A stretch of DNA of 26,364 nt from a virus. The notes below the pieces were generated by a model. The model was not told the DNA's origin, made no database searches, and was given only the letters and a program-made list of their open reading frames with translations. The position numbers and the translations under genes are program-made. Where the stretch lies: the IMG/VR virus record IMGVR_UViG_3300027763_003626, positions 1 to 26,364 of that record; one strand, written 5' to 3'. How positions within the stretch are numbered: the stretch's first letter is position 1; every line of letters starts with the position of its first letter. Positions 9,998 through 24,959 of the stretch are shown here, piece by piece.

Positions 9998-11247
9998 TTG
10001 ACCTCCTTGAGATTCCAGCGGCTCTTCTTAGTAGTCTTCCAGTCTTCTACAGTCTTCTTTAGGGTCTCATGCCAAAGATCGACTGTCTTCTGGTAAGAGA
10101 ATTCGCTCTTGACATAGCTCTTGGCCTTTGTGCCGAGCTCACGCCTCTTGTCAAATCCCATGTCGTACATCTTCACAAGGGCTTGCGCGGTCTCATCGAT
10201 ATCGCAAAAGTCTTCATAGATGTAGGGAACGTGCTGAGATCCTACAAGCGTCTTCTGCCGGATCTCTAGAGCGATTCCATTCTCAGATCCATCTCTGTGG
10301 TCTACAACTTGCCTTGTCAGGCCTCCAGTCTTTGCAGCAATGATTGGCCTGCCGCACTGCATGGCCTCTAACGTTGCTAGACCAAATCCCTCTGCGTAAG
10401 ATATGTTGAGACAACAGTCCGAAACATTGTGGAGGATGTTGATCTGCTCAAACCCGACGCGATCTGGAGAGAAGACTACGGTGTCTCTAAGCTCCAACTG
10501 CTCGGCGACCGAGTAGAGATTCGGGCCTTCCATGTCTTTTGGATCCGTGTGCATCACGAGAGTCGCTTTCGGATTTGCGTCTCCACGAGACTTGAGAATA
10601 TCAAGCATCTTTTTCCAGGCCCAAAGCACGTCAGAAGGGCGCTTGCGCCTAGCATTCCTGTTCATCCAGAAAGTAACAAAGTGATCTTCTCTGGCAGGTC
10701 CAAGAATGTTTCTCTTGTGGATCTTGACCTGATCTTCTGGCATCTGATAGTAGACGGAATCAGGAAGAGCGTGGGGAATGAAGTTCGTCTTCTCAGGGAA
10801 CTTTTCCCTGATGAGCTCATAAGTCATGTGAGAGTGGCAATTGATCAGATCAGTCGCCTCATAGAACGGCGAGTTGAACTCTGGATACGGGTGATTGTCC
10901 CATACATGCCACCAAACGATCGGACAGACCTGGTGTACTTCATCTTCCATCTCAAAAAGCCAATAGAAGAACCTGGGGTCCGTGAACAGGAAGATGACAT
11001 CTGGCTTTTCGGCAGCCAAAGTCTTCCTGATCAAATCTCTATCCCCAAATCCGTCTATTGGCTTTATGATGAAGTCTGGGTTGACCTGTATCGCGTCGTA
11101 GTTATCGTGCTTGACCGCAGCGCCGAACTGTCTAACAGTCCACTCGCCCTTTGCAATCAGGCCGTTCACCAGGTGGCGGCTCTGAGTTCCCACGCCAGAA
11201 GTGCTCAGTGCGTGATCAGACAAAAGTAGTATTTTCTTCTTGCTCAT
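9994..11247 (-). CDS. Glycosyltransferase, GT-B fold (GT4 family)
   Basis: This 417-residue enzyme is a typical GT4 glycosyltransferase. The N-terminus KKILLLSDHALSTSGVGTQS holds the first strand and the glycine-rich acceptor loop (G18-G20). The C-terminal half carries E286-GFGLATL-E294, then AMQCGRPIIAAKTGG, the donor phosphate and sugar site. A Trp/His-rich stretch, VWWHVWDNHPYPEF (about 111-124), recalls acceptor-contact loops. The substrate is unknown. The ATG at 11247 has an AGAGGA site about 7 bases before it. The 54-base gap in front is one of the larger ones in the block, so a local promoter is possible, though I see no clear one. Its stop overlaps the next GT4 start by 4 bases. Confidence 0.9.
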   Translation of the reverse strand: MSKKKILLLSDHALSTSGVGTQSRHLVNGLIAKGEWTVRQFGAAVKHDNYDAIQVNPDFIIKPIDGFGDRDLIRKTLAAEKPDVIFLFTDPRFFYWLFEMEDEVHQVCPIVWWHVWDNHPYPEFNSPFYEATDLINCHSHMTYELIREKFPEKTNFIPHALPDSVYYQMPEDQVKIHKRNILGPAREDHFVTFWMNRNARRKRPSDVLWAWKKMLDILKSRGDANPKATLVMHTDPKDMEGPNLYSVAEQLELRDTVVFSPDRVGFEQINILHNVSDCCLNISYAEGFGLATLEAMQCGRPIIAAKTGGLTRQVVDHRDGSENGIALEIRQKTLVGSQHVPYIYEDFCDIDETAQALVKMYDMGFDKRRELGTKAKSYVKSEFSYQKTVDLWHETLKKTVEDWKTTKKSRWNLKEVK

Positions 11248-11301
11248 ATTCCTCTAGAACCTTTGCAAAACTATCAATGGCTCTAGATGGTTTAAAGGAG
11301 A

Positions 11302-12099
11302 TCAAGTGCAATACTTAGTCTGATGGTAGTCACAGTACTTACAGGACTCTCGATTCTTCATGAAGAGTCCGCGCTTCACTGAGGCGATCATGTTGGCAAC
11401 CATCTTCCTCGCCTTCTCTTCAACGGTTGGCCCGACCGAGACTGTGAACAGCTCACAGGAGCGTCCAGGCTTCACGCCCTTCTTGAGAAGAACATAGCCG
11501 CACTTCACGTCCTTTGACGGCAAAGACTTCTTGGCTCGCCAGAAAGACTTGTAGAGAGCGATCTGTGCCAGGACATTGAAGTCTCGGCGTTTGTCTGTGC
11601 TCCATCCACGGGCACTGGAAGTCTTCCAGTCGATCACCCAGTAGACCCGACCCCGCTTGCCATCGCACTCAATGAGACCGTCGATGAATCCCTTGAACTT
11701 GATCTCCTGCCCAGGGATATCCTCATAGAGTGCATGCTCAGCCTCTATTGCGACCCAATTAGGAAAATTCTGATCAAGGAAAGCTGGAACTTCATCAAGG
11801 ATCTGACGAGCCCACTTGACCCAGCTGTCGACAAGTCCATTCTTCTTGGCGTCAGGAAGCTCATCAAACTTCTTCTCCGCCCACACGCGGCGAATCTCAG
11901 CCTCGACATTGTCAGGATTCATGGTCCTGGTTGTCAGGAAGTTCTCGAGCTCGGCGTGGACTATGGTTCCAAAGTCAAGATTGGGAGATGGCTTCGAAAG
12001 ATCGACCTTGTCGATCTGAGCCAGCTTGTGACGCCATGGACACTCCTTCCAGGTCTTGATTTCAGAGTAAGATACGTGTGGCTTTTGGGTTGGGAACAT
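11302..12099 (-). CDS. Cas4/RecB-like PD-(D/E)XK nuclease with a probable 4Fe-4S cluster
   Basis: This 265-residue protein fits the PD-(D/E)XK nuclease superfamily (PDDEXK_1). The visible motifs are VSYSEIKTWKECPWRHKL at the N-terminus, H49 in GTIVHAELE, D140 in GFIDGLI, D157 and K159 in VIDWKTS, and Q179 with Y183 in the helix that follows. Cysteines C20, C253, C256 and C264 (CKYCDYHQTKYC) have the Cas4/AddB spacing that holds a 4Fe-4S cluster. Such enzymes resect DNA ends, here presumably in phage recombination, repair or host DNA breakdown. It is out of place between gmd and the GT4 genes. No good ribosome site precedes the ATG at 12099. There is no Cas gene or CRISPR nearby. Confidence 0.85.
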   Translation of the reverse strand: MFPTQKPHVSYSEIKTWKECPWRHKLAQIDKVDLSKPSPNLDFGTIVHAELENFLTTRTMNPDNVEAEIRRVWAEKKFDELPDAKKNGLVDSWVKWARQILDEVPAFLDQNFPNWVAIEAEHALYEDIPGQEIKFKGFIDGLIECDGKRGRVYWVIDWKTSSARGWSTDKRRDFNVLAQIALYKSFWRAKKSLPSKDVKCGYVLLKKGVKPGRSCELFTVSVGPTVEEKARKMVANMIASVKRGLFMKNRESCKYCDYHQTKYCT

Positions 12100-12135
12100 G
12101 CAACATCATATACCAACGCAATCTCAATTTCACAT

Positions 12136-13107
12136 TTACAGAGACTTTTTTGTGAGTTCAAGATCCGCTTCGTACATCAGCTTTGCCAGACTCTTGAACG
12201 TAGTCTTAGGAGTCCATCCAAGCTTTTCCTTCGCCTTTGAGTAGTCGCCCTCAAGCCACGGAACCTCGTGTGGCCTCTTCAACCTGTCGTCAATCACAAG
12301 GTGCTCGTCCACATTGAGACCCGCAATATCAAACACTTCGTTCAGGAATTCTCTGACCGTGTGGGTCTCACCAGTTGCGACAACGTAGTCATCAGGCTTG
12401 TCCTGTTGGAGCATAAGCCACATCGCCTCAACGTAGTCCTTGGCATAGCCCCAGTCTCGTAGAGCGTCGAGGTTCCCAAGAGAGATCTTGTCCTGTAGGC
12501 CAAGCTTGATCCGCGCCGCCGCCAAGGTGATCTTGCGAGTCACAAAAGTCTCGCCACGCCGCGGACTCTCATGATTGAACAGAATACCAGAAGATGCGTG
12601 GATTCCGTAACCCTCACGGTAGTTGCGAGTGAGACCATGCGCGAAGACCTTGGCGCAAGCATATGGTGAGGCTGGCATCAGACGAGTCTCCTCACTCTGA
12701 GGGTGCTCGGGATTATCTCCGTACATCTCAGAAGAAGATGCCTGGTAAAATCTGCAGCTCGGCTGCATGGTCCTGATACATTCTAGCAGTCTCAAAGGAC
12801 CAACAGCGACGGCATCCACAGTCTCTTCTGGAACGTCAAAAGAAACTCGGACGTGAGACTGCGCAGCAAGATTGTAGACTTCATCGAACTTTTGATTCGA
12901 AAAGAGCCTGTAGAAAGATCCTGCATCATTCATGGAGCCATAGACAAGCTGAAAGTTCGGGTGCTTAAGCAGGTGATCAATTCGATCAGTCGCAAGAAGA
13001 GAAGTTCTCCTCTTCATTCCAATAACTCTGTAGTCTTTCTCTAGAAGGAGCTCGGCGAGATAGCTCCCATCTTGCCCAGTGACTCCAGTGACTAGTGCAG
13101 TCTTCAC
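12136..13107 (-). CDS. gmd: GDP-mannose 4,6-dehydratase
   Basis: This 323-residue SDR enzyme converts GDP-D-mannose to GDP-4-keto-6-deoxymannose, the first step to GDP-L-fucose and related sugars. The N-terminal NADP(H) loop [13 protein letters not shown] (residues 7-19) is the classic Gmd form. S125 and E127 (SSSEMYGDN) and Y149/K153 (SPYACAKVF) give the catalytic set, and [17 protein letters not shown] (177-193) is the family GDP-mannose signature. Length is slightly short of bacterial Gmd (about 345-370). It starts with GTG at 13107, which overlaps the upstream TGA (GTGA), with AAAGGA in front. Together with the GDP-L-fucose synthase 700 bases upstream it makes the complete route. A GDP-rhamnose path is less likely because Fcl is present. 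Confidence 0.96.
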
Positions 13108-13817
13108 GTTGAGTCCTTTGTGCGGTTAAAGATTTCTTGCTTGACAAACACTGTGTTTACTTGATCTCTATAGACTTCACTATAACCAGAATTCAAGATG
13201 AAGTTTCTTACTCTCTGCTCTCTTTCTACAATTTCACTGTATCTGGCAAAGTCTTTGTGCCCATCTTGAATCTCGCAAATCAGCATCTTGGGGTCTAGCT
13301 GCTTGAGATCGAAAGATCTCAATACGCTTTCTTCGTAGCCTTCAACGTCGATCACGAGTAGATCAGCATTCTTCAAGCCAACGGCGTCTAAGATAGTTTC
13401 CAACCTATAGACTTGAACCTCTCTTACTCCAGAGAAATTCTGTTCCAAAGCTTCTTTAGCCCACGAGATCTCTTTGTAAGCTTCAAGATGGTCCTTGTCA
13501 AGTGTCGTGATGCTGGCTGCGACAGCAATTCTTGCTTTTGATTCGACTTCTCCAACAGCGCAACAAACTACTTTTATCTCAGGATTGTGAGAGTGATTCA
13601 AAGAGCAGGCACGAGCGTACTCAGAGACAGGCTCAACATATAGCCCTTTCCAGCCAAGCTTAGATAAGGCGTAAGTGTTGCTCCAGCTTATTCCATCATA
13701 AGCGCCGACCTCTACAAAAACTGGGTCCTCACCAGCGTTTGGCAAGAGCCACTTATTGTATATCTGCTCCAAAGATTCAATCTGGCAATCATGAGGAACC
13801 TCAAGCTTAGTGTACAT
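13104..13817 (-). CDS. FkbM-family SAM-dependent methyltransferase
   Basis: This 237-residue protein has the FkbM layout. SAM motif I is FVEVGAYDG (34-42), an acidic end of strand 2 follows in LYVEPV (59-64), and the typical motif is [13 protein letters not shown] (155-167). FkbM enzymes mainly O-methylate hydroxyls of polyketides and sugars, and in glycan clusters they usually cap or decorate sugars. The acceptor cannot be read from sequence. The gene lies between fcl and gmd, with an 11-base overlap at its start and an AGAGGA ribosome site, so it is expressed with the fucose genes. Methylation of fucose or of a neighbouring sugar is an inference from that position. Confidence 0.88.
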
Positions 13818-14739
13818 GGAATCCTCTTACGTTTGGATATCGATCTTGGAATTTTCTAATAGTCTCTTGAAGGCCTTCTCGAAGTGGTGTATACTCTGCT
13901 GACCAGCCAAGAGACCTCAGCTTATCATTTGAAGACGGCTTCTCGTACTGTCCGTCAGGCTTTGAAGAGTCAAACTTGATGTGTCCCTCAAATCCGATTT
14001 CCTCTCCGATCATCAGAGAAAGATTTTCGATAGAGACCCAATCAGGGTTACCGATGTTGATAGGCTCCTCGCCATCATAGTTTTCCGCAAGCCACAGAAT
14101 GATCTTGGCTGCGTCCCTGGCAAAAGTGAACTCACGGATTGGACGTCCAGATCCCCAGACAACGACTTCATTCCTGCCTGCCTGCATTGCCTCATGGAAC
14201 TTCCGGATGAGAGCTGGAATGACATGACCACTGTTGAGATCGTAGTTGTCATTGATACCGTAGAGATTGTTTGGAATGACCGAGATGAAGTTGCACCCAA
14301 ACTGCTGGCGATAAGCCCTGCTCTGGACCTCAAGCATCCTCTTTGCGTACGCATATCCAAAGTTCGATAGATGCGGAGGACCCATGTGAAGCTGATCCTC
14401 TGTGAGCGGGTACTTCACATAAGGCGCGTCTGGGTAGATGCAGGTCGAGAGCACAGAGACAAGCTTCAGCTTATTCACTCTGCAGGCATTCAGCACATTC
14501 ATGTTCATCTTGACATTGTCATCAAAGAAGTCAGCGACATAGTCAGTGTTAGCCTTCACACCTCCGACCCTTGCGGCACAGTGAATGACCGTGTCTACTC
14601 GTCCATCTTCCAGAGTGAGGATAGCATGATTCGAATCCGTGAGATCACATTCTCTCGAGCTGAGTCCAACGGAACCAGGAGACAGAGCAAGAATCTCGCT
14701 GCCAAGAAGTCCAGTTGCTCCTGTGACTAAATTTTTCAT
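13807..14739 (-). CDS. fcl: GDP-L-fucose synthase (GDP-4-keto-6-deoxymannose epimerase/reductase)
   Basis: This 310-residue SDR enzyme epimerises and reduces the Gmd product to GDP-L-fucose. It shows the NADPH loop TGATGLLG (residues 6-13), AARVGG (55-60), the active-site run LSTCIYP (97-103) with C100 at the place of the catalytic Cys of E. coli Fcl, and Y129/K133 (YAYAK). NNLYGINDNYD is the usual family motif that follows. I chose the ATG at 14739 because it overlaps the TGA of the 76-residue gene (ATGA) and puts the beta-strand MKNLVTGATG at the N-terminus. An in-frame start at 14796 would add 19 unlikely residues inside the upstream gene. Confidence 0.95.
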   Translation of the reverse strand: MKNLVTGATGLLGSEILALSPGSVGLSSRECDLTDSNHAILTLEDGRVDTVIHCAARVGGVKANTDYVADFFDDNVKMNMNVLNACRVNKLKLVSVLSTCIYPDAPYVKYPLTEDQLHMGPPHLSNFGYAYAKRMLEVQSRAYRQQFGCNFISVIPNNLYGINDNYDLNSGHVIPALIRKFHEAMQAGRNEVVVWGSGRPIREFTFARDAAKIILWLAENYDGEEPINIGNPDWVSIENLSLMIGEEIGFEGHIKFDSSKPDGQYEKPSSNDKLRSLGWSAEYTPLREGLQETIRKFQDRYPNVRGFHVH

Positions 14740-14966
14740 TTGATAAGGACCTCGTCGCCTGTCCAGACAGCGACTCCAAGACAAGCTAAGTTCCACTTTT
14801 TCACGTCACCCTCAAGCGAAGATTCACTCCAGGATGGGACTTTAATGTTGACTCCAGAAGCGCATCTCTCGACTCCGTCTTGGAAGATACGCCACACAAG
14901 ATTGCTATTGCCATGCTTTGTGTTAAATCTGATCAAGAACTTGCTGGTAGCTATGTCATCTTTCAT
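14736..14966 (-). CDS. Small conserved-looking phage protein (76 aa), unknown function
   Basis: This 76-residue gene has ATGA overlaps on both sides: its ATG at 14966 overlaps the TGA of the FkbM-like gene and its TGA overlaps the fcl start. That fit makes it a real gene in spite of its size. The sequence has a beta-rich pattern: FLIRFNTKHGNSNLVWRIF, then GVNIKVPSWSE, KKWNLACLGVAVWTGDEVLI. I recall short proteins of this 'RFNT..WR.FE.G / IKVP.W.E / KW...C' form near nucleotide-sugar genes in other marine phages, without a known role. It has no signal peptide and no membrane segment. It may be a partner of the sugar enzymes, but that is a guess. Confidence 0.78.
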   Translation of the reverse strand: MKDDIATSKFLIRFNTKHGNSNLVWRIFQDGVERCASGVNIKVPSWSESSLEGDVKKWNLACLGVAVWTGDEVLIK

Positions 14967-15610
14967 GGCGCAATCTCAAAGAGGTAATCTGCCCACCATC
15001 TGTCATCAGAGAAATCATGAAACTCTCCTCTAGTCACTATGCCGTGGCTAGAACCAACTAAAATGTAACCAAACTGTTTGAGATATTCAGCTGCTGATTG
15101 TACTGTGTTGTCTGGAAGATCAGGGTAGATTTTCCCCTTCCTTGCGTCTTCTAGCTCTAGGGTTATCGATCCAATCTTCTGCGACCTGAGATAAGCCTCA
15201 AAGGTCTTCAATATTGTGAGATCTGCACCCTGGGCGTCTGTTATCAGAGTGTCTATCTGTTCGATTCCCTTAGACTGCAAATAAGCAGGATAGTTCACGC
15301 TTCTGACCTTCACAACTTTGCCATTATGAAGATTTTCATGTGAACGATAGGGAAAATCTAAACTATTTCCCTTTGATATAGAGCTTGTGCCAAGGTCTGA
15401 TCCACCTGAAAGCGTAAACTCAATCTCGCCATCATGAGTCCATGCTGCGGCAGTCATGACCTCGACATTTGGAATCTCATTAAGTCGCTTGTGAAGATCC
15501 GCATACTTCTCAAGAGGGTCAATCCCATAGTGCCTATCGAATCTTCCTGAGTTCACTAGCTCTATGAATGTAGAGCAATAAGATAGACCGATGTATACCA
15601 GATTCTTCAC
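14963..15610 (-). CDS. FkbM-like methyltransferase
   Basis: This 215-residue protein resembles a reduced FkbM methyltransferase. YGIDPLEK (28-35) fits the acidic end of SAM-binding strand 2, and TLITDAQGADLTILK (121-135) matches the FkbM motif usually written 'lKIDvqGaE..VL.G'. The N-terminal glycine motif is weaker than normal (YIGLSYCSTFI), so SAM binding is likely but less certain than for its 237-residue relative. It starts with GTG at 15610, with an AAAGGAA ribosome site 6 bases before, and follows the 226-residue protein by 15 bases. Local G+C is low (about 37% in a sampled 60-base line at 15061). A sugar O-methyltransferase role is an inference. Confidence 0.75.
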   Translation of the reverse strand: MKNLVYIGLSYCSTFIELVNSGRFDRHYGIDPLEKYADLHKRLNEIPNVEVMTAAAWTHDGEIEFTLSGGSDLGTSSISKGNSLDFPYRSHENLHNGKVVKVRSVNYPAYLQSKGIEQIDTLITDAQGADLTILKTFEAYLRSQKIGSITLELEDARKGKIYPDLPDNTVQSAAEYLKQFGYILVGSSHGIVTRGEFHDFSDDRWWADYLFEIAP

Positions 15611-15625
15611 GGCTAATTCCTTTGT

Positions 15626-16306
15626 CTAGGCTTCAAAGAGAGGGCTAGTAATGTTCTCACTGGTGATCATGCACCACGAAGAACAGCTGGGGTTGGGGTC
15701 AAAATCTAATCTTCCGCCTTGAAATCGATGGGTAGCGCTGTACTTTGGCCAAACTGCGCCGGCAGAATTTAGAGTGTCAATTATGGAAGCAGACCTAATC
15801 TGTGCATTGCAGCCTTCGACTCTAGGATTCTTGAGGTCGTCAATCAGTATGACGTAATTCTTGTACTTTTGAGTTATTAGCTCAACTTCTCTTAGGACGG
15901 TTGGATCATCATCTTCATCAGAATGAGCGTCTAGCCAAAATACAGGAATAGCATCGCGGGGCACGGCCTTATCGATCTGCCCAAGAAAGCTCAAAGAGTC
16001 CGAGTGAGTTATCGAGACATTTTTGCGGACGGAACATTGCAAAGTTGCTGCTTCGTAGTTGCTCCTTGAGAGCTCGCAGCTATGTAAAATTGTCCCTGGA
16101 GAATTCAAAGAAACGTAGTCGCAGGTGATGCCTAAGTACGTTCCTGTCTCTACAAAGATGTCATAATGCCTCAAGAGCTTGATCATAAAATCACAGAGAA
16201 TCGCGTCTCTATGAAATCCAGAGATCCTCTCGTTACGAAACTCGATGCAAGAGTTTGTTCTCAGGAACTCTTGCGCGTCAAACGCCGCAATTGAAACAGA
16301 AGACAT
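15626..16306 (-). CDS. Class I methyltransferase-like protein (Methyltransf_24 type)
   Basis: This 226-residue protein has a Rossmann methyltransferase outline: FVETGTYLGITCDYV (51-65) as SAM motif I, the acidic strand HSCELSRSNY (75-84), FWLDAHSDEDD (123-133) and ILIDDLKNPR (153-162). The 'WLDAH...ILIDD' pair is usual for Methyltransf_24/CmcI-type enzymes, in which these acids bind metal and the hydroxyl acceptor. It probably O-methylates a sugar or small molecule in the cytoplasm. Its ATG abuts the stop of the aminotransferase gene and the ribosome site is poor, so coupling is likely. The exact subfamily is uncertain, and an inactive relative is possible because motif I lacks the usual third glycine. 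Confidence 0.7.
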   Translation of the reverse strand: MSSVSIAAFDAQEFLRTNSCIEFRNERISGFHRDAILCDFMIKLLRHYDIFVETGTYLGITCDYVSLNSPGTILHSCELSRSNYEAATLQCSVRKNVSITHSDSLSFLGQIDKAVPRDAIPVFWLDAHSDEDDDPTVLREVELITQKYKNYVILIDDLKNPRVEGCNAQIRSASIIDTLNSAGAVWPKYSATHRFQGGRLDFDPNPSCSSWCMITSENITSPLFEA

Positions 16307-16972
16307 TCACTTACCGGTGCTTTGAAAGATTTCTAGTCCTGAGACGTCGTGGTACTTCCAAGAACCGCCACAGTCTTTGTTGTCGTCAGAGACCTCAAGG
16401 AACAGTTGAATTCCTCTAGCGGCCTGCTCGGGTGGCATGTACATGTTCCATCCCATCATCTGGATCTTGTCCTGATCGTAGGGCACAGTAATATCGCGCC
16501 CCTCGTACCGAGCAAGCTTGAACCAGTCATATGCTGCCTTGTCATTTGTCAGGATCATGCCGCCCTTTCCAATCGGCACTGTCTTCTTGATGTGGAAGGA
16601 AAGACAGTGGAATGTATCCTGCACATACATCCCCTTGGTGAATCTCGTAGCTCCATCGACAATGTTGTATGGATCTAGCTTGTAGCACCCAGACCAATCG
16701 AAGTCGACAAAATCTGGAGTACAGCCAGCGTGTATGATAGTCTGTGGAACTGAGACATACGTGCGGGATGGAATTTTTATCTTGCCGCTAGCGTTGTTGT
16801 ACCTGAGACAGAGAAACAACGCGTCGGTGCAATTATCGACGCTTACAGCGTACTTGCTACCTGCGTAGTTAGCGACCATCTTCTCAAACGCATCAACAAC
16901 GTCCCAGGGGTCATTGATGACAAACCCAAGACCCTCTAGCTTTGGCTTAATTTCCTCAATACTAGCGAACAT
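16307..16972 (-). CDS. Short DegT/DnrJ/EryC1-type PLP sugar aminotransferase
   Basis: This 221-residue protein matches the large-domain core of DegT/DnrJ/EryC1/StrS nucleotide-sugar aminotransferases. It has AVSVDNCTDALFLCLR (42-57), IKIPSRTYVSVPQTIIHAG (65-83), the PLP-ring aspartate D106 in YNIVDGATRF, and the Schiff-base lysine K130 in SFHIKK, followed by the IGKGGMILTND glycine turn. The D106-K130 spacing matches the family. The usual length is about 370; here the protein ends after residue 221, so the C-terminal small domain is missing, although the reading frame is clean and the next gene follows at once. A strong GGAGGAGA site precedes the ATG. Donor Glu/Gln and a keto-sugar acceptor are the family norm. 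Activity is not assured. Confidence 0.8.
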   Translation of the reverse strand: MFASIEEIKPKLEGLGFVINDPWDVVDAFEKMVANYAGSKYAVSVDNCTDALFLCLRYNNASGKIKIPSRTYVSVPQTIIHAGCTPDFVDFDWSGCYKLDPYNIVDGATRFTKGMYVQDTFHCLSFHIKKTVPIGKGGMILTNDKAAYDWFKLARYEGRDITVPYDQDKIQMMGWNMYMPPEQAARGIQLFLEVSDDNKDCGGSWKYHDVSGLEIFQSTGK

Positions 16973-17858
16973 TCTCCTCCCACCAAAGCAACAGGTTCAA
17001 ATACTGCAGCTCATGTTCCTTTAGTTTATCTCGAGAGATCAGAAGTTTAGCAAGCTGCTTAGATCTCACGGGAGATCTTGACTTCCAAACTTCTGACTGA
17101 TCATCTATGGCGCCTGCAACGTGGTCTTTGGTCAGCGTGAAGCTCTCAGCAGATGGACTCAAGCCGTACGTCAAAGCACAATTTTGAGCGTCTCTAAACT
17201 TGTGCGGGAAATCCTTGTGGTGAGTCATCTGATTGAAGACTTTCCAGACTAGATCGACAACTGATTCGCTTCTAGCGACTCTCTCAGGGTGCGCAAAAGT
17301 ATCGTGCTCGTGTCTGGTGTTCCTTACTCTTATGCTGTCAAAGCATACCTGCTTGTTCGGCGCAATCTTGTTGCCCAAATACTGGCAGAATAAGCTGACT
17401 CCGCCGCTTGCGTGGCAAACAAATGGAAAGACATTCTCCATGAACGACCGGTGATAGACATTAGTCTGTTGGTCGTAGTCGGTGATGCAGAACGCCTCTT
17501 TGCCTTCTGGATTTTCATAAACAATTTTTCCGCTACTGACTTCTTGGAAAGTAGCGCAAAGTGGCTTCCACTTCTCGAGGCAACGAAGAATCTCGCTGGC
17601 AGGATCTTCAGTGATGAATTCCGTGTCATCATCTATGAAGATGTAGTACTCGTAGTTCTTCTGGACCACATCGTACAAGAATGTCCGACCCTCAGAAAAT
17701 AGAAGCTTAGACTGGTAGAAGTCCGACGCAGGATCTTCAGGGGTGCTCCAGTTCAGTCTATAGAAGTCGCAAAAGTCACGCGTGAATAGCTCGCGCTTTT
17801 GGACTGACAGAGGGTCATTGACGTACCTTCCCTGCTCGAGTATGCAGAACTTTTTCAT
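16962..17858 (-). CDS. Probable GT-A-type glycosyltransferase with DDD motif
   Basis: This 298-residue protein shows YYIFIDDDTEF (71-81), a buried strand ending in the DxD-type metal and nucleotide-sugar site of GT-A glycosyltransferases. The segment before it (FLYDVVQKNYEY) and the later HASGGVSLFCQYL fit the remaining sheet and acceptor loop. I cannot name the family. The C-terminal 70 residues are helical and basic. The ATG at 17858 overlaps the upstream TGA (ATGA), and the end overlaps the aminotransferase gene by 11 bases. Membership of the glycan block is clear from context. Donor sugar and acceptor are unknown. A non-catalytic relative cannot be excluded. Confidence 0.7.
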   Translation of the reverse strand: MKKFCILEQGRYVNDPLSVQKRELFTRDFCDFYRLNWSTPEDPASDFYQSKLLFSEGRTFLYDVVQKNYEYYIFIDDDTEFITEDPASEILRCLEKWKPLCATFQEVSSGKIVYENPEGKEAFCITDYDQQTNVYHRSFMENVFPFVCHASGGVSLFCQYLGNKIAPNKQVCFDSIRVRNTRHEHDTFAHPERVARSESVVDLVWKVFNQMTHHKDFPHKFRDAQNCALTYGLSPSAESFTLTKDHVAGAIDDQSEVWKSRSPVRSKQLAKLLISRDKLKEHELQYLNLLLWWEENVR

Positions 17859-18526
17859 CGAGAAAACTCAGAGTAGTAGCCTCCAACCTTGAAATCTGTT
17901 CCCTTGGTGACTGAGGTGAGGTTTCTCTCTGGAAAGTATTTGTCTCTTGGCAGGATTCTAAAGTCCAAGCTCACGCGAGTGAGACCAGTCTCATTGATCT
18001 TGTTTCCGTGCGTGAGCTTGTTTCCATTGAAGCAGACCAGTTGGCCAGGATGACAGTTCATGGGCTTATAGTCTCCGAGTCCTGGTACGCTCTCGCACCA
18101 AGTAGCGCTGGTCCCATACATCACTGTGAGAGGGATCTGGAAATTGATTTCTCCATCAGGGTGCCTGTGGTCTATATCGCTATCATAGTGCCACTTGTAA
18201 GTGGCCTTGTAGTTTGGAACATGGACTCTGAACGAAGGAAATGTCTGATAGATAAATTCCTTGTTGACGAGGGGAGAAACGACTTCACGCAAGATGCCGT
18301 GATAAGCATCGATGATTTCAGTCCAAGAGAATGGACCATCATGGTTCAGCCTCTTATAGAAAGCAGAGTGATACTCAGTCTTGCTCTCATTGCTACTGTC
18401 AAGGTTATCGAACATGAGGTCGCTTCTCTGGACATGCAGAAGCTCTAAAGCAGTCACGCCGAACAGATCTTGCACGTGGCTTCTGATCGGAAATTTGGTC
18501 TCATCGTAGTCAAGAATTACCGGCAT
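17855..18526 (-). CDS. StrG-like 2-oxoglutarate/Fe(II)-type oxygenase
   Basis: This 223-residue protein resembles the streptomycin-cluster StrG family, a cupin/2-oxoglutarate oxygenase-like group. The visible metal set is H113 and D115 in KWHYDSD, followed by GEINFQIPLTVMYG, a distal H173 in GNKLTHGN, and R184 in TRVSLDFRILP, which would hold 2-oxoglutarate. The arrangement H-x-D...H...R is the family pattern, but activity of StrG proteins is poorly known. A role in hydroxylating or oxidising a sugar is inferred from the neighbours. The ATG at 18526 has an AGGAG site 5 bases before. It follows the sulfotransferase by 8 bases and overlaps the next gene by 4. Confidence 0.75.
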   Translation of the reverse strand: MPVILDYDETKFPIRSHVQDLFGVTALELLHVQRSDLMFDNLDSSNESKTEYHSAFYKRLNHDGPFSWTEIIDAYHGILREVVSPLVNKEFIYQTFPSFRVHVPNYKATYKWHYDSDIDHRHPDGEINFQIPLTVMYGTSATWCESVPGLGDYKPMNCHPGQLVCFNGNKLTHGNKINETGLTRVSLDFRILPRDKYFPERNLTSVTKGTDFKVGGYYSEFSR

Positions 18527-18534
18527 GGAGTCTC

Positions 18535-19239
18535 CTATCTTAGTCCCGCAAATTGCTCTCTGATGATTGAATCGTAAGCGACCCTGAACCTCTCTCTGGT
18601 GTTCTCATAGACTTCGGGGGCTTGGACGGCTTCAGCACTTAACGCGGCTGGATCATGAGGAGTCACAGACTTAGTGAGGCTCTTGTTGCACTTCTCATAT
18701 ACGGCAAGAATTTTGGTGGTATCTACTTCCCTACCGAGGAATCTAAGAACGTGGGCCATGGATTCGACTGGATTTGACTTGAGCTCTTCATAAGAGAGGC
18801 TGATCATCGACTCAATGTCAGAATTATCCCTAGTCCACCTGGAGAGGTGCGCTCTGTATTCTTCAACTAGAGACTGAACCTGATCGTCAAGCCACTGATT
18901 CCTCTCGCCGTTCCAGTTGCTGGCAATAGTGTGATCGTAGCGTAACTGGGAATAAATCGTGTCTACTGGGTCTCTGTGGAGGTAGATCACCTTCTTGAGG
19001 CCAGCGGTGAGACCCTCAGAGGGTTCGTAATTTCCCACGCGCCGATCATGAATGTGGAATCCCCAGAACGACTTTGGATTAGGGTCAAAGAAGCTCTGGA
19101 CATAAGACGGCTCTCCGAGATATGACTCGAGCAGAATTCTGAGCCAGTGAGAACCAGTCCTCGGATAAGAGACTAGCCGTGGAAATTCCGGATTGTTCTT
19201 GACTCCATCCCTATCTAACATAGCGGTAATGTCATACAT
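18535..19239 (-). CDS. PAPS-dependent sulfotransferase
   Basis: This 234-residue protein has both cofactor motifs of cytosolic-type sulfotransferases. YPRTGSHWLR (25-34) is the 5'-phosphosulfate loop, with the 'PKTG/PRTG' form, and VIYLHRDPVDTIYSQLRY (84-101) is the 3'-phosphate-binding strand and helix with its Arg and Ser. It would transfer sulfate from PAPS to a hydroxyl, here probably of a sugar. PAPS must come from the host because no PAPS genes are in view. I chose the ATG at 19239 over an in-frame start at 19317 because GAGGT lies 5 bases before it and the longer form would overlap the GT11 gene by 86 bases. It lies directly after the two fucosyltransferases. Confidence 0.88.
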   Translation of the reverse strand: MYDITAMLDRDGVKNNPEFPRLVSYPRTGSHWLRILLESYLGEPSYVQSFFDPNPKSFWGFHIHDRRVGNYEPSEGLTAGLKKVIYLHRDPVDTIYSQLRYDHTIASNWNGERNQWLDDQVQSLVEEYRAHLSRWTRDNSDIESMISLSYEELKSNPVESMAHVLRFLGREVDTTKILAVYEKCNKSLTKSVTPHDPAALSAEAVQAPEVYENTRERFRVAYDSIIREQFAGLR

Positions 19240-20011
19240 CGATAACCTCGTAGTGTTCTGGAAGAAGATCCTGAGTGTCTTTTGGTCCAGAGGGTCCGAA
19301 CCAATTTTTCGGAGCAATCACGACTTGCTCACTTGAGCTGGCCAGCCAAGATCCCCACCAGCTGAAAGAGCTATTTGCGATGATGTGGTGTTCACAGCTT
19401 GACATGGCACACAGGTCTTCAATGTTAGAGAGGCCTTCATACACCGTTGCTTCAGCAATATTTTGCCGGCACCACTCTCTGTCGTCCGAGAAAGCAATGA
19501 AGTCAACGCTACCAAGCCTCTTCCTGAGTATATCAATCGCCGCTCGATAGTAATCAACGCTTAGCGGTGGATGAGTGTCTCTGAGCTTGACATAGTCTCC
19601 CCTCCTTACGTGGATAGCGACTCTCTGCTTACCAACAGGTAGCTTGTCTTTAGTGGCGTTTCTCAGCGTCTCTTCAAACTGGAAGATCTTTCGTACATGC
19701 TCTGGATCGGTGATGTACTTCCAAGACTGTAGATAGCCGACAACATCGCAGTTCCCAGGTATCAAAGCCATCTCTCGAGAATGGGAGAACCCGGGTTCAT
19801 TCCACCTATATTTTATGAACTGCGCAGTCTGCTCGTTCAGATCAACGGCTGGAATCTTGAAGTGATTTCTAATCTCTGCTCTGCTCTCATCAGGCAGGAT
19901 AAGCTGGAGATTTCTATCTTTTGCAAGGCAAGACACAGCCGCGACCTGGAACATTTGATTGCAGAGCCGACCGTAGCTTCCCAGCATGGAGAAGCTCACA
20001 TACTCACTCAA
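19232..20011 (-). CDS. Alpha-1,2-fucosyltransferase-like enzyme (GT11)
   Basis: This 259-residue protein carries the GT11 motifs in order: GRLCNQMFQ (14-22), VVGYLQSWKYI (90-100), IHVRRGDYV (133-141, the GDP-fucose-binding HxRRGD), FSDD (174-177) and NSSFSWWGSWL (213-223). GT11 enzymes move L-fucose from GDP-fucose in alpha-1,2 linkage to galactose or related sugars, in the cytoplasm of bacteria. Length is a little under the usual 280-300. The start is TTG at 20011, supported by AGGAG 8 bases before it and by an 8-base overlap with the GT10 stop; the next in-frame ATG would cut into the first strand. With gmd, fcl and the GT10 gene it forms a fucosylation set. Confidence 0.92.
   Translation of the reverse strand: MSEYVSFSMLGSYGRLCNQMFQVAAVSCLAKDRNLQLILPDESRAEIRNHFKIPAVDLNEQTAQFIKYRWNEPGFSHSREMALIPGNCDVVGYLQSWKYITDPEHVRKIFQFEETLRNATKDKLPVGKQRVAIHVRRGDYVKLRDTHPPLSVDYYRAAIDILRKRLGSVDFIAFSDDREWCRQNIAEATVYEGLSNIEDLCAMSSCEHHIIANSSFSWWGSWLASSSEQVVIAPKNWFGPSGPKDTQDLLPEHYEVIDV
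19245..19249 (-). promoter_or_regulatory. Ribosome binding site that sets the sulfotransferase start
   Basis: GAGGT on the minus strand lies 5 bases before the ATG at 19239. This supports the shorter sulfotransferase reading over the in-frame start at 19317. Confidence 0.7.
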
Positions 20012-20846
20012 CTCCGAATCTCCTGCTCAGGATATCAGCCACGATGTTGTCAATGCTGTAGTAATCGAGGCTCTTTGCGTGATTTGCCTCTATGGGATCT
20101 AGCATTGACAGGTAGAGGTCTTCATTTAGCTTTGGAATGATCTGCATGAGGTCCATTGCGCTCTCAAAGACAATGATGCCCTTCTGGTCAAAATGCTCAA
20201 ATACGGTTGGATCTCCCCAGTACACTGGTACCGTGCGGCAAGCAAAGCAGTCTAGTATCTTTTCAGTGTGGTAGTTTGGCGCCCTGTTGTTCTCGATCGA
20301 TATCGAGAATCGATACGGCAATAGGGCTTCGGCTTTTCTGTCGATTGGATTGCAGCCTCGACCGTAGAAATCGACATCATATCCAGCCTTCCGAATGTGG
20401 TGCGCAATGTCATGCCTCAACCTGTGACCTTCAAGGATTCTCTTGTCAGAGAATATGTGAGAGCAGTCTCTTGACTTGGCATGCTTGTCGTGAATCGCTG
20501 GCGTATCAACAAAGATCCCATCTGCAGGCATGTAAGCCGCTTTTTCGGGATACATGTCGAGAAGCTTCTGGTCGTGGGTCAAGATTAGGTCAAAGCTAGA
20601 TCCAATCTGCTCGAGGATCTGGTAAGACTGAGGCTCAAAAGCCCTGGGCTCCATGATCCAAGCAACGTTCTTCTTTGTGTTTACCCTCCCAACAAATTGC
20701 GTCATCCTGCCTGTGAAGATTGTGATGCCGTCGTACTCTGAGAGCATCTTGACGTAGGAGATTTTTTCAGGGATTCTCCCACGCTCAAGCGTCTCGTCAT
20801 AGGAGTCGGCATGCGAGATGTTCTCGTCTATCAAGTTCACAATCAT
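20004..20846 (-). CDS. Alpha-1,3/4-fucosyltransferase-like enzyme (GT10)
   Basis: This 280-residue protein has the GT10 donor-site signature in the right order: RFSISIENN (179-187), NYHTEKILDCF (191-201) with the invariant Y..TEK, and TVPVYWGDP (205-213). These match the 'FxxxxENs...YvTEK......VPVvwG' pattern of alpha-1,3/1,4-fucosyltransferases such as those of Helicobacter, which use GDP-L-fucose and act on GlcNAc. The N-terminal half (acceptor domain) is less conserved, as usual. There is no C-terminal heptad or membrane-anchor region. The ATG at 20846 overlaps the upstream TGA (ATGA), and its own TGA overlaps the GT11 start by 8 bases, so the two fucosyltransferases are coupled. Acceptor and linkage are not provable from sequence. 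Confidence 0.9.
   Translation of the reverse strand: MIVNLIDENISHADSYDETLERGRIPEKISYVKMLSEYDGITIFTGRMTQFVGRVNTKKNVAWIMEPRAFEPQSYQILEQIGSSFDLILTHDQKLLDMYPEKAAYMPADGIFVDTPAIHDKHAKSRDCSHIFSDKRILEGHRLRHDIAHHIRKAGYDVDFYGRGCNPIDRKAEALLPYRFSISIENNRAPNYHTEKILDCFACRTVPVYWGDPTVFEHFDQKGIIVFESAMDLMQIIPKLNEDLYLSMLDPIEANHAKSLDYYSIDNIVADILSRRFGVE
20020..20024 (-). promoter_or_regulatory. Ribosome binding site that supports a TTG start for the GT11 gene
   Basis: AGGAG on the minus strand lies 8 bases before the TTG at 20011. The TTG start keeps the first beta strand of the fucosyltransferase; the next in-frame ATG would remove it. Confidence 0.65.
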
Positions 20847-21433
20847 CTGAGCGCTGGCCTATTTCTCTTTGAGAGCATGTGGCCCTCGATGACTTCCTTG
20901 TCGAGCCTGCCCAAGTCCAAGAGTCCATCTAGACCGAGGAAATGTGTGTTGGTGAACCCCAGCCTCTCGAGGTGCTGCTCAAGTGGGTACTTTGCGGCAT
21001 TGAAGTTATTCCTGCCCAAGAGGTAACCGCCTTGGACCACGTTCTTTGCTGCCCAGTCCTGACCAGCCCACTTGGCGACTGGCGTGGTCGGGAACGAGCC
21101 TATGTCGTTGTGGACAAAGGCGATCTCAAAATTGTCATCAGGAGATAGGTCAAGGGAGTTCTTGATCCTCACTCTGTCGTGGTTCTTCGGGTTTGCGATG
21201 TCAAATCCAATACAGCGATCCCTGCCAAAGAACTCACACAGCATGTCAAACCCAACGCAGTTGTTGGTCCCCATCAGGAGGATGAATCCATGCTTTGGAA
21301 TGTCAGAAATCTTGAAGACCACGTCTTCATAGATCTTGCAAGCGTAGTAGTCCCTGCTGTAGTTGTCAACATCACCGTGGAGATGGACTTGCTCAAACCA
21401 GAACTTTTGGCTGTAGTAATCAGACTCTTTCAT
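20843..21433 (-). CDS. Rossmann-type, methyltransferase-like protein
   Basis: I cannot name the family of this 196-residue protein. The pattern HGFILLMGTNNCVGFDML (48-65), RCIGFDIANP (73-82) and NFEIAFVHNDIG (100-111) looks like SAM motif I, the acidic end of strand 2 and motif IV of a class I methyltransferase, but the glycine motif is poor (GTNNCVG). A Rossmann enzyme of another sort, or an inactive one, remains possible. It starts with ATG at 21433, with GAGG about 5 bases before, and follows the GT2 gene by 6 bases. It overlaps the GT10 start by 4 bases, so it is likely to act on the same glycan or its precursor. Confidence 0.6.
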   Translation of the reverse strand: MKESDYYSQKFWFEQVHLHGDVDNYSRDYYACKIYEDVVFKISDIPKHGFILLMGTNNCVGFDMLCEFFGRDRCIGFDIANPKNHDRVRIKNSLDLSPDDNFEIAFVHNDIGSFPTTPVAKWAGQDWAAKNVVQGGYLLGRNNFNAAKYPLEQHLERLGFTNTHFLGLDGLLDLGRLDKEVIEGHMLSKRNRPALR

Positions 21434-21439
21434 GGAACC

Positions 21440-22186
21440 TCAGCTGATCCTGCTATATTTTGGTCGGGTCCTGATCAGCCTATCAACTCTACCCTGATCG
21501 GCAGAATTGATAACATCGTCGCTCAAAGGATTCCAACGATTATAGACATAGAGAGCGTTCGGAATGAAAGCGTGGCGCTCTCCAGCCATCTCAAGCATTG
21601 GAATCATGAAAGAAACGTCCCAGCCAGTCTTGAAGTACGTTCCGTCAACGTCCCTCAGATCCTCGTCCCTTATCGCGTTCCAGATCCTGCTCTTGAACGT
21701 GCGTAGGTGGCTGGAGATGAACTTATAATCTCTGTAGGAGTTACTCCTGACAACATCATCGGGAAATGGCTCGCAGTTTGTTCGGGTCTGGCCAGTTGGC
21801 CAATGAATATGATTTCCGTAGGTCAAGAGGACGCGAAAGTCTCGGTACACATTGCTGACAATCGCAAGAGAGAACTCAGAGAACAGGAAATCGTCTCCAT
21901 CGATGACCATAAGAACTGACTCAGGATCTTTGTCAGTCTCGAGGAGCTTGAAGCCTTCGACAATGTTGTGCAGCGCCTTCCTGTTCTCGGTGTTGTGGAC
22001 TACTGTGAACCTGGCGTCTGGAAATTCCGCAAAATGCTTGTCAATTGCTGCCCCAGTGTTATCGGTGCTGGCGTCATTATAGACAATGCACCGAAAATCA
22101 GTGTGGCTCTGCGACTGGATGGAGTGCAAGCACCTGGAGATCCAGTGCTCTGTGTTGTAGGTTGGTACGACAATATTGAATCGCAT
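21440..22186 (-). CDS. Glycosyltransferase family 2 (GT-A)
   Basis: This 248-residue GT2 enzyme opens with RFNIVVPTYNTEHWISRCL, the standard first strand and helix. It then has VYNDASTDNT (35-44), whose D38 contacts the nucleotide, and VIDGDDF (94-100), which is the DxD metal site. The acceptor side is short, so it probably adds one sugar to a cytoplasmic acceptor. I chose the ATG at 22186, which overlaps the preceding TGA (TGATG); a GTG one codon earlier at 22189 is also possible. It lacks membrane segments, unlike polyprenol-phosphate GT2 enzymes. It is the second of two GT2 genes in tandem, which share little beyond the motifs. Confidence 0.9.
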   Translation of the reverse strand: MRFNIVVPTYNTEHWISRCLHSIQSQSHTDFRCIVYNDASTDNTGAAIDKHFAEFPDARFTVVHNTENRKALHNIVEGFKLLETDKDPESVLMVIDGDDFLFSEFSLAIVSNVYRDFRVLLTYGNHIHWPTGQTRTNCEPFPDDVVRSNSYRDYKFISSHLRTFKSRIWNAIRDEDLRDVDGTYFKTGWDVSFMIPMLEMAGERHAFIPNALYVYNRWNPLSDDVINSADQGRVDRLIRTRPKYSRIS

Positions 22187-22926
22187 CACTTGTCCTGATT
22201 GTTCGTAGATGTGTTCCTGCGGTAACAGTACTGGCGCTCAGCAAGAATCGAAGTCTTTCCCAAGAGGGCTGTCGCTCTGAAGTTAAAGTCGCTGTCCTCA
22301 CTGTTCAGCACACGGAGGCCGACACCGGGAGGATTGAACCTGAGCCCATATCCGAACAGCGCTCGGTGGAACATTGCAGAGACTCCGGCAGTCTCAAACC
22401 TTCCAGTCGAGTAGTGGTTCACTCCTGGCGTGTGGAATCCACCCAGGACAAGCTTCGAGACTGTTTCCTGCTCCATCACAGTTAGTTCTTCTCCGAGAGC
22501 AGGCAGTGACATCGCTTGATCCACGTCATCTTCGTCATAACAGTGGTAGAAACCACAGAGATTGTGCAGCGTATTTGTCTCAAAGAGGCATCTGAGCTGA
22601 CGGAAGATCCTATCAGGAAGCGAGATGTCATCGGAGTCGTGGGACGTGAAGAAGTCACATTCGCTATTTGACATCACGTAGTTGAGGGCATGCCACTTTC
22701 CGTGATTATCTTCGAACTTGTGGTACTTGACGCGCAGATCTTCCTTTGCGAGCTCGCTAACAATCTCATCGATCCCTTGGTCAGGGCTCGAGCCGTCATT
22801 AACGACGGCAATTTCGAGGTTCTTCCACGTCTGATTTTGGATGCTCTGGACGCTCTGCTTGAGATACCTTCCGTGATTGTAGCACGCAATCACGACCAGA
22901 ACCTTCGGCTCTTTCTCACTTATCAT
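22186..22926 (-). CDS. Glycosyltransferase family 2 (GT-A)
   Basis: This 246-residue GT2 protein starts with KVLVVIACYNHGRYLKQSV, followed by VVNDGSSPDQ (41-50) with D44 as the nucleotide contact, NHGKWHALNYVM (74-85), the 'n.G...A.N.g' GT2 helix, and HDSDDIS (96-102) as the metal-binding DxD. It would transfer a sugar of unknown identity in the cytoplasm. No membrane segment is seen. Its ATG lies 11 bases inside the end of the fusion glycosyltransferase gene, and its TGA overlaps the next GT2 start. The C-terminal Asn/Asp-rich tail is normal for short phage GT2 enzymes. The call is firm for family and open for substrate. Confidence 0.9.
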   Translation of the reverse strand: MISEKEPKVLVVIACYNHGRYLKQSVQSIQNQTWKNLEIAVVNDGSSPDQGIDEIVSELAKEDLRVKYHKFEDNHGKWHALNYVMSNSECDFFTSHDSDDISLPDRIFRQLRCLFETNTLHNLCGFYHCYDEDDVDQAMSLPALGEELTVMEQETVSKLVLGGFHTPGVNHYSTGRFETAGVSAMFHRALFGYGLRFNPPGVGLRVLNSEDSDFNFRATALLGKTSILAERQYCYRRNTSTNNQDK

Positions 22927-24823: not shown

Positions 24824-24903
24824 TTTTCACTCCTCAAAATTGAACACTTCAACTTCTGGAGGTACTAGTTTTAAGAGAAAAGAGAACAGAGACTAGTAAC
24901 GAC

Positions 24904-24930
24904 CAGTAGAACAACTAGTAGATTCTACTG
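24904..24930 (-). repeat. Inverted repeat, 8-bp stem with 11-base loop
   Basis: CAGTAGAA and TTCTACTG (24904-24911 and 24923-24930) are perfect inverted copies around an 11-base loop that contains ACTAGT. It lies just after the T-run of the candidate terminator in the direction of transcription. It could be an operator, an RNA processing site, or part of a double terminator; sequence alone does not say which. Confidence 0.5.
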
Positions 24931-24935
24931 AGCAG

Positions 24936-24959
24936 AAAAAATAGATAAAAGACTCTATT
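24936..24959 (-). terminator. Weak candidate Rho-independent terminator
   Basis: On the minus strand AATAGA and TCTATT (24954-24959 and 24940-24945) can pair around an 8-base loop, with a run of six T ending at 24936. It lies about 30 bases past the stop of the discoidin/PA14 gene, where a terminator is expected. The stem is only six base pairs and AT-rich, so it would be weak alone; neighbouring hairpins may help. Confidence 0.35.

What the first reader, a model, noticed from the sequence alone, without database searches (positions are those of the whole stretch)
12136..20846. Phage-encoded full GDP-L-fucose route with two fucosyltransferase families
Gmd and Fcl together convert GDP-mannose to GDP-L-fucose, and GT11 and GT10 proteins with intact donor motifs lie in the same gene string. 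GT11 (alpha-1,2) plus GT10 (alpha-1,3/4) is the pair used, for example, by Helicobacter to make Lewis-type host-mimic glycans. Finding both, coupled by an 8-base overlap, with the donor synthesis genes in a phage structural region points to a dedicated phage fucosylation system rather than a single tailoring gene.
Basis: partly seen in the sequence, partly recalled or inferred. Interest (0 to 1): 0.88.

Follow-up and report, generated by a model that had tools for sequence, protein, structure and literature searches.

The report
Phage genes for fucose-bearing glycans
A large virus of bacteria carries its own genes to make activated fucose and to attach it to a sugar chain, as part of a bigger sugar-building gene block; similar sets exist in other aquatic phages, so this is a good new example rather than a new kind of thing.

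Summary
The minus strand carries an intact Gmd, a divergent Fcl (GDP-L-fucose synthase) with its active-site positions kept, a GT11 and a GT10; GT10 and GT11 overlap by 8 bases (TTG start). AlphaFold models match fucosyltransferases solved with GDP-fucose, and comparison with relatives shows no decay. The four genes belong to a 12.7 kb, 16-gene glycan island of a T4-type myovirus, with a sulfotransferase, FkbM methyltransferases, a short DegT protein and other glycosyltransferases. It is not unique: the isolated cyanophage S-SRM01 and six more contigs in my census carry all four families, and S-SCSM1 is in print with Gmd, Fcl and three fucosyltransferases. Nor is the link obligatory: 14 of 21 other records with both GT10 and GT11 lack a full Gmd-Fcl pair. 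The Helicobacter/Lewis parallel is not supported. Most useful addition: a relative with an 85%-identical baseplate protein keeps Gmd and Fcl, while the rest of the island seen on its contig differs, as in a serotype locus. No polytopic exporter was found in the phage. The acceptor (virion protein or host surface glycan) is undecided.

The parts
12136..13107 (-). Gmd, GDP-mannose 4,6-dehydratase (GTG start)
   Evidence: TIGR01472 442.5 bits > 415; PF16363; PDB Gmd hits; 89% identical in relative G043 with pN 0.07, pS 0.77
13104..13817 (-). FkbM-type methyltransferase
   Evidence: PF05050 79.5 bits; a full-length DegT stands in its place in relative G043
13807..14739 (-). Fcl, GDP-L-fucose synthase (epimerase/reductase)
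   Evidence: NF047922 253 bits, below cut-off 500; 18 best PDB hits all this enzyme, with STC, YxxxK and GHV(I/L)P aligned to the best one; 75-76% identical in G043
14736..14966 (-). small ORF, no family
   Evidence: no Pfam match; shares 4 bases with the Fcl start (coordinates)
14963..15610 (-). second FkbM-type methyltransferase
   Evidence: PF05050 36.9 bits
15626..16306 (-). ORF with relatives in other phage glycan loci, no family
   Evidence: no Pfam/PHROG/NCBIfam match; iterative profile finds 8 sequences, own copy included, among the loci
16307..16972 (-). short DegT-type sugar aminotransferase-like protein (221 aa)
   Evidence: PF01041 84.8 bits; equally short copy in L026, 65-67% identical
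16962..17858 (-). ORF, no family
   Evidence: no match; only its own copy found among the loci
17855..18526 (-). possible 2OG-Fe(II) oxygenase of carbohydrate clusters
   Evidence: TIGR04324 28 bits, below cut-off 150; no Pfam match; relatives in 4 other loci
18535..19239 (-). sulfotransferase, start ATG 19239 overlapping the GT11 end by 8 bases
   Evidence: PF00685 61 bits; weak matches to solved sulfotransferases; 37% identical copy in L026
19232..20011 (-). GT11 fucosyltransferase (TTG start)
   Evidence: PF01531 106 bits; phrog_2644 193 bits; H-x-R-R-x-D invariant in 24 of 24; model matches NodZ/POFUT1/FUT8
20004..20846 (-). GT10 fucosyltransferase
   Evidence: PF00852 34.9 bits; E66, R144, E195 and K196 invariant in 15 of 15; model matches alpha-1,3-fucosyltransferase with GDP-fucose
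20843..21433 (-). ORF, no family; also next to GT10 in L026
   Evidence: no Pfam match; 54% identical in L026
21440..22189 (-). GT2 glycosyltransferase
   Evidence: PF00535 71.7 bits
22186..22926 (-). GT2 glycosyltransferase
   Evidence: PF00535 83.3 bits
22916..24823 (-). large protein with a C-terminal GT2 domain
   Evidence: PF00535 31.9 bits; 55-56% identical in L007 and L026
8843..11247 (-). two glycosyltransferases of the 'group 1' type (8843-9997, 9994-11247) in the flank
   Evidence: PF00534; present in the four backbone relatives G003, G014, G043 and G044

Best explanation
This is a glycan-biosynthesis island of an uncultured T4-type myovirus. The host supplies GDP-mannose; phage Gmd and Fcl turn it into GDP-L-fucose; GT11 and GT10 add fucose residues to a glycan whose core is built by the phage's other glycosyltransferases; sulfotransferase, methyltransferase and other enzymes decorate it. 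Overlapping genes probably couple GT10, GT11 and the sulfotransferase in translation. Shown by families, aligned catalytic residues and folds: the enzyme classes, and the likely donor class for GT10/GT11. Inferred: that fucose is the product and the donor, the order of steps, and the acceptor. I think the acceptor is slightly more likely a virion (tail or capsid) protein glycosylated in the cytoplasm (about 0.45) than a host surface glycan (about 0.40). Enzymatic part alone: about 0.8; the confidence given is for the whole statement with a virion acceptor.
For: Gmd over its equivalog cut-off. Fcl closest to GDP-L-fucose synthases, with the Ser/Cys, Tyr-x3-Lys and His positions kept (residue roles recalled). 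GT10 Y192/E195/K196 align with positions 246/249/250 of the solved alpha-1,3-fucosyltransferase 2nzw, and the phage GT10 profile aligns its invariant Glu, Arg and Lys with FUT9 positions that I recall as E137, R202 and K256. GT10 model pLDDT 91.7; its ten best Foldseek hits are all fucosyltransferases. GT11 model pLDDT 96.0; best hit NodZ with GDP-fucose, and the top 43 VIA rows are all fucosyltransferases (Z 12.8-14.9), then 11.7. Low non-synonymous against near-saturated synonymous difference in 8 of 8 pairs. No ORF of 60 aa or more with over 2 predicted membrane segments in the pieces that cover the 132 kb contig but for about 200 bases; the same hydropathy filter finds 35 ORFs with 6 or more segments in 80 bacterial GT10 loci. 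Island contiguous with baseplate genes on one strand.
Against: Fcl scores half the NF047922 cut-off, a cut-off that 4 of 14 control genomes pass. 14 of 21 other records with GT10 and GT11 lack a full Gmd+Fcl pair, among them 6 of 7 complete cyanophage genomes, so the transferases can live without phage GDP-fucose. Backbone relative G014 has both transferases and Gmd but a GalE-like SDR instead of Fcl. No PF00483 nucleotidyltransferase in G001/G002, so GDP-mannose supply depends on the host. VIA ranks many non-fucosyl GT-B enzymes level with GT10s for the GT10 model, and Foldseek mixes heptosyltransferases among the GT11 matches from rank 8. No direct evidence for any acceptor; absence of an exporter does not exclude use of host lipid-linked glycans.
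Confidence: 0.4

Rival explanations
1. Same enzymes, but the acceptor is the host's surface glycan (O-chain or capsule intermediates at the inner face of the membrane). The changed surface blocks adsorption by competing phages or re-adsorption of progeny.
For: This is the published reading for GT clusters of jumbo cyanophages (PMC7824862, passages) and pelagimyophages (PMC7029224, passages). The island sits beside baseplate genes, somewhat like the hypervariable host-recognition region described there. Difference between close relatives fits antigen-like change.
Against: No polytopic protein such as a flippase, polymerase or exporter found in the pieces of the 132 kb contig, though host machinery could serve. 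If the phage is lytic (lifestyle not tested), it has little time to remodel a surface.
Confidence: 0.4
2. The Gmd product is diverted: Gmd (alone or with an SDR) makes GDP-D-rhamnose or another GDP-6-deoxyhexose, and GT10/GT11 use that or host GDP-fucose, so this is not a fucose route in practice.
For: PBCV-1 Gmd makes GDP-rhamnose as well as the Fcl substrate (PMC5408694, passages). Fcl is below its equivalog cut-off. G014 keeps the transferases and Gmd without Fcl.
Against: Fcl catalytic positions intact and 18 best PDB matches all this enzyme; Fcl kept near Gmd in G043 and G003.
Confidence: 0.12
3. The glycans hypermodify phage DNA to resist restriction.
For: [quoted passage not shown] seen only in another paper's reference list.
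Against: No thymidylate-synthase-family gene in any of 7 records searched, three of them short fragments; other base-modifying routes were not searched. Fucose plus sulfate decoration would be unusual for DNA (general knowledge).
Confidence: 0.04

Closest known systems
Synechococcus phage S-SRM01 glycan locus (MW015081, isolated freshwater cyanophage)
   Same: Gmd, Fcl, GT10, two GT11, FkbM methyltransferase and GT2-like genes on one strand within about 11 kb; a sulfotransferase-family gene elsewhere in the genome
   Different: Also has a NodZ/FUT8-type enzyme and SIS/nucleotidyltransferase genes. Gmd 51%, Fcl 36%, GT11 32%, GT10 35% identical. The GT10 is annotated only as 'putative transferase'. 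A Kyanoviridae phage.
Synechococcus phage S-SCSM1 (PMC9602691; MK867354)
   Same: Published as carrying Gmd, GDP-L-fucose synthase and three fucosyltransferase genes (passages; gene table of part of the locus)
   Different: GT11, NodZ and a protein O-fucosyltransferase, but no GT10 match; GDP-mannose 3,5-epimerase and a wcaG RNA annotated
Chlorovirus PBCV-1 Gmd/GMER
   Same: Virus-encoded GDP-mannose to GDP-L-fucose pair, shown in vitro (PMC5408694, passages)
   Different: Virus of green algae; glycans on the capsid protein; transferases not compared here
IMG/VR contigs G003, G014, G043 (loci L007/L104, L026, L086/L102): same phage backbone
   Same: Same flank (nuclease, two GTs, hub/baseplate-side genes) and Gmd at the island edge
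   Different: G003 also has NeuB and an NTP transferase. G043 has UDP-galactopyranose mutase, GT90, NAD synthase and UDP-glucose dehydrogenase-type genes, and no GT10/GT11 on the contig. G014 lacks Fcl on its 20.5 kb contig.

Membership tests
Gmd (GDP-mannose 4,6-dehydratase) | score over the TIGR01472 equivalog cut-off | tested here: met
   442.5 against 415 bits
Gmd (GDP-mannose 4,6-dehydratase) | converts GDP-mannose to the 4-keto-6-deoxy intermediate | not testable with these tools
   needs an enzyme assay
Fcl (GDP-L-fucose synthase) | score over the NF047922 equivalog cut-off | tested here: not met
   252.8 against 500 bits. 0 of 56 phage records reached it (S-SRM01 473), while 4 of 14 control genomes did. 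So I say 'works like Fcl', by best match and residues, not 'member by this model'.
Fcl (GDP-L-fucose synthase) | Ser/Cys, Tyr-x3-Lys and His active-site positions aligned to a solved enzyme | tested here: met
   STC, YAYAK and GHVIP aligned to GDP-L-fucose synthase 4e5y; roles recalled
GT11 | PF01531 over cut-off with the H-x-R-R-x-D motif | tested here: met
   106 bits; H134, R136, R137 and D139 invariant in 24 of 24 sequences
GT11 | alpha-1,2 linkage | not testable with these tools
   linkage cannot be read from sequence
GT10 | PF00852 over cut-off with the donor-site Y-x2-E-K motif | tested here: met
   34.9 against 23.9 bits; Y192, E195 and K196 align to 2nzw positions 246/249/250
GT10 | GT-B fold closest to solved GT10 fucosyltransferases | tested here: inconclusive
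   Foldseek ranks fucosyltransferases 1-10, but VIA Z ties them with other GT-B enzymes
Phage glycan island of the cyanophage type | Gmd+Fcl with GT10+GT11 on one phage genome, also found elsewhere | tested here: met
   7 of 21 other records with both transferases
Helicobacter-type Lewis antigen synthesis | GT10 closest to Helicobacter enzymes | tested here: inconclusive
   Nearest tree rows are phage GT10s; the one Helicobacteraceae row sits in another starred group of three inside the same larger set. H. pylori FucT was not in the tree, and it is the best solved match.

The most novel reading that the evidence does not exclude
The island works like a serotype locus of the phage particle. GDP-L-fucose supply (Gmd/Fcl) is a near-constant core at a fixed genome site beside the baseplate genes, while fucosyltransferases, sulfotransferase and other tailoring enzymes are swapped between close relatives, giving virions of one lineage different sulfated, fucosylated coats that change recognition by hosts, rivals or grazers.
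Probability: 0.2. Interest if true: 0.65.

Novelty: new member of a known kind. Interest (0 to 1): 0.36.

Why it matters
It extends virus-encoded GDP-fucose synthesis with two fucosyltransferase families to a distant T4-type lineage. It also gives a comparison, of near relatives with conserved donor synthesis and different transferases, that makes the open question of what phage glycan clusters decorate (virion or host surface) directly testable in a cultured carrier such as S-SRM01.

Tried and rejected
Chance or mis-annotation: rejected (scores, motifs, folds). Decayed copies: rejected; open frames, and low non-synonymous against high synonymous difference in 8 of 8 pairs (dS saturated in 7 of 8, so no ratio is quoted). 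A truncated, dead DegT: an equally short form exists in L026, so decay is unlikely though activity is unknown. Late promoter TATAAATA, up to 1 mismatch: 1 hit, on the + strand, against 5.5 expected. Sigma-70 promoters and terminators in 8000-26364 no more than shuffles (13 against 14.3, sd 3.5; 18 against 14.3, sd 4.0), so no regulatory claim. Rfam: no match up to E 1 in the window. Host: not determined; no tRNAs in the window or the five contig pieces scanned; baseplate matches weak and mixed (Microcystis, Flavobacterium and uncultured phages, 32-34%). My reading of 7790-8539 as a T4-type late sigma factor found no support. Sulfotransferase as the novelty: tblastn found none in 50,697 phage records, but the Pfam model finds the family over cut-off in S-SRM01, S-SCSM1, G014 and G017 besides the window phage, so it is not new.

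Selection and drops: the family census used 56 records: 40 of 77 other GT11 contigs (hand-picked, mostly but not strictly the longer ones), 2 copies of the window phage, 2 of the backbone relatives, and 12 phage records, 10 of them from the 19 with a GT10 tblastn hit. It is not a random sample. Two contigs outside the census, L019 and L029, also show all four genes by tblastn. The search for related loci kept 80 of 118 GT11 candidates and 80 of 147 bacterial GT10 candidates. The 21-record count drops W08 (GT10, no GT11) and the window copies G001/G002. Thresholds for a 'full pair' were mine: Gmd at least 280 bits, Fcl at least 165 bits; NCBI's own Fcl cut-off would leave none. G041 has Gmd cut by the contig end and is counted. 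The GT10 tree bootstrap had not settled and has long branches.

Papers: PMC9602691, PMC8557907, PMC7029224, PMC7824862, PMC5408694 and PMC12619734 were seen as passages only; others only in search listings. PMC10527164 is not held. I do not claim that the GT10+GT11+Gmd+Fcl set is absent from print.
Full report
What was checked. All island genes lie on the minus strand and are open. Gmd (12136-13107) passes its NCBI equivalog cut-off, 442.5 against 415 bits; Fcl (13807-14739) scores 252.8 against a cut-off of 500. That miss must be told: 0 of 56 phage records reached the cut-off, but 4 of 14 control genomes did. [quoted passage not shown] The active-site letters (STC, YAYAK, GHVIP) align; their roles are recalled. 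GT11 (PF01531, 106 bits) and GT10 (PF00852, 34.9 bits, C-terminal part only) both pass Pfam cut-offs.

Donor-site evidence. GT10 Y192/E195/K196 align with positions 246/249/250 of 2nzw, the H. pylori enzyme (organism recalled). In a 15-sequence phage alignment E66, R144, E185, E195 and K196 are invariant, and the profile aligns the first two with FUT9 positions that I recall as E137 and R202. GT11 H134, R136, R137 and D139 are invariant in 24 sequences. The GT10 model (pLDDT 91.7) has fucosyltransferases as its ten best Foldseek matches, two of the top three solved with GDP or GDP-fucose; the second aligner puts unrelated GT-B enzymes level with them, so the fold alone does not settle the donor. 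The GT11 model (pLDDT 96.0) matches NodZ with GDP-fucose first, with heptosyltransferases appearing from rank 8; the top 43 VIA rows are all fucosyltransferases.

Overlaps. GT10 ends in TTGAGTGA, whose TTG starts GT11 behind an AGGAG; GT11 ends in ATGTATGA, whose ATG starts the sulfotransferase. Both 8-base overlaps suggest coupled translation; this is inference from sequence.

The island. From 12136 to 24823 there are 16 genes: Gmd, FkbM, Fcl, a small ORF, FkbM, an unknown, short DegT, an unknown, a possible 2OG oxygenase, sulfotransferase, GT11, GT10, an unknown, GT2, GT2 and a large GT2-domain protein. Two more 'group 1' glycosyltransferases and a PD-(D/E)XK nuclease lie at one flank, then further genes and the baseplate wedge. 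Lectin-like domains occur near both ends of the window (GLEYA/PA14 at 24990-26021; laminin-G in 3-1691). GC is 0.44-0.50 in most of the island, about 0.47-0.51 in the adjoining GT/nuclease flank, 0.50-0.54 in the baseplate part, and up to 0.59 in the large GT2 gene: no sharp boundary.

Which virus. The window is 99.94-99.97% identical to the matching parts of two longer IMG/VR contigs, G001 (70.5 kb) and G002 (132 kb). Both have a T4-type portal gene (268 bits), so this is a T4-type myovirus, distant from named phages (baseplate protein at most 34% identical). Host unknown.

Backbone relatives. G043 has a baseplate wedge 85% identical. By blastn (E up to 1e-20) homology to the window runs through the flank into Gmd and Fcl (78-79%) and no further. 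A full-length DegT stands where FkbM is between Gmd and Fcl; an extra epimerase and a UDP-glucose dehydrogenase-type gene lie between the nuclease and Gmd; the 9 kb from Fcl to the contig end hold an HtrL/YibB-family gene, another epimerase, a GHMP kinase, a UDP-glucose dehydrogenase-type gene, UDP-galactopyranose mutase, NAD synthase and GT90. No GT10 or GT11 is on the contig, though some could lie beyond its end. G014 (L026) keeps the order GT2-GT2-(ORF)-GT10-unknown-oxygenase-DegT-sulfotransferase-GT11-(two genes)-Gmd at 35-68% identity, but has a GalE-like SDR where Fcl might be expected. G003 has GT2-GT2-GT11-GT10, then other genes, then Gmd (70%) and Fcl (55%) at the same flank, with NeuB and an NTP transferase. 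In all 8 gene pairs compared, synonymous difference is 0.70-0.92 and non-synonymous 0.07-0.44, as expected of maintained genes; saturation forbids exact ratios.

How common. Of 56 phage records searched, 24 have a GT10 over cut-off. Leaving out the two window copies and W08 (no GT11), 21 have both GT10 and GT11, and 7 of these also have Gmd (at least 280 bits) and Fcl (at least 165 bits): G003, G017, G018, G037, G040, G041 and the isolated cyanophage S-SRM01. In S-SRM01 Pfam confirms GT10, GT11 and Gmd and NCBIfam the Fcl match at 473 bits. Two contigs outside the census, L019 and L029, also show all four by tblastn. Against tight coupling, 14 of 21 lack the full pair, and 6 of 7 complete cyanophage genomes with both transferases reach neither threshold. 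The records were picked for GT11 or GT10 hits, so these are not frequencies in nature. Sulfotransferases pass the Pfam cut-off in 5 of 55 records: G002, G014, G017, S-SRM01 and S-SCSM1.

Origin. In a tree of 104 GT10s the window sequence pairs with L026 (100/87), next with a row from an uncultured Prochlorococcus assembly (98/93, long branch), and lies in a starred set of 34 rows, 24 phage and 10 cellular; most bacterial rows, largely Pseudomonadota, are on the other side (bootstrap not settled). A GT11 lies on 13 of 80 bacterial GT10 loci, so the pair is not a Helicobacter signature.

Mechanism. Host GDP-mannose (no PF00483 gene in G001/G002) feeds Gmd and Fcl; the product feeds GT10/GT11; other GTs build the core; sulfate and methyl groups are added. 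The acceptor is open. For a virion acceptor: location among structural genes, and no ORF with more than 2 predicted membrane segments in the pieces that cover the contig (about 200 bases missing), while the same filter finds 35 ORFs with 6 or more segments in 80 bacterial GT10 loci. For the host surface: the published view of similar clusters (PMC7824862 and PMC7029224, passages). DNA modification is unlikely.

Verdict. Observation confirmed, interpretation partly right, kind already known: S-SCSM1 is in print with Gmd, GDP-L-fucose synthase and three fucosyltransferase types (PMC9602691, passages), and chlorovirus enzymes make GDP-L-fucose in vitro (PMC5408694, passages). What deserves follow-up is the conserved donor pair with exchangeable neighbours at a fixed site.

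Noticed in passing
window 16307-16972 (-): DegT-type protein of only 221 aa instead of about 387; an equally short copy, 65-67% identical, lies in L026 6346-7011, so it may be a real compact form.
   Followed up: partly
window 24990-26021 and 3-1691 (-): Lectin-like proteins (GLEYA/PA14/F5_F8; laminin-G) lie near both ends of the window around the glycan island.
   Followed up: no
L102 2803-16839 (relative G043): The differing island includes UDP-galactopyranose mutase, an NAD synthase and a GT90; an NAD synthase is also annotated in the glycan clusters of S-SSM7, S-SCSM2R and Sf-FS3.
   Followed up: no
L116 5223-7529: A Cyclobacteriaceae MAG has GT11, GT10 and a GT2 side by side, much like the phage arrangement; it could be a donor locus or a binned phage contig.
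   Followed up: no
window 7790-8539 (-): By eye resembles a T4-type late sigma factor, but no Pfam or PHROG match.
   Followed up: partly
L094 960-1057 and L101 3199-3285: wcaG ncRNAs are annotated in cyanophage glycan clusters; no Rfam match in the window.
   Followed up: partly
L122 6001-6780: A contig assigned to an uncultured Prochlorococcus single cell carries the cellular GT10 nearest to the window's; long branch, and it may be a phage contig.
   Followed up: no
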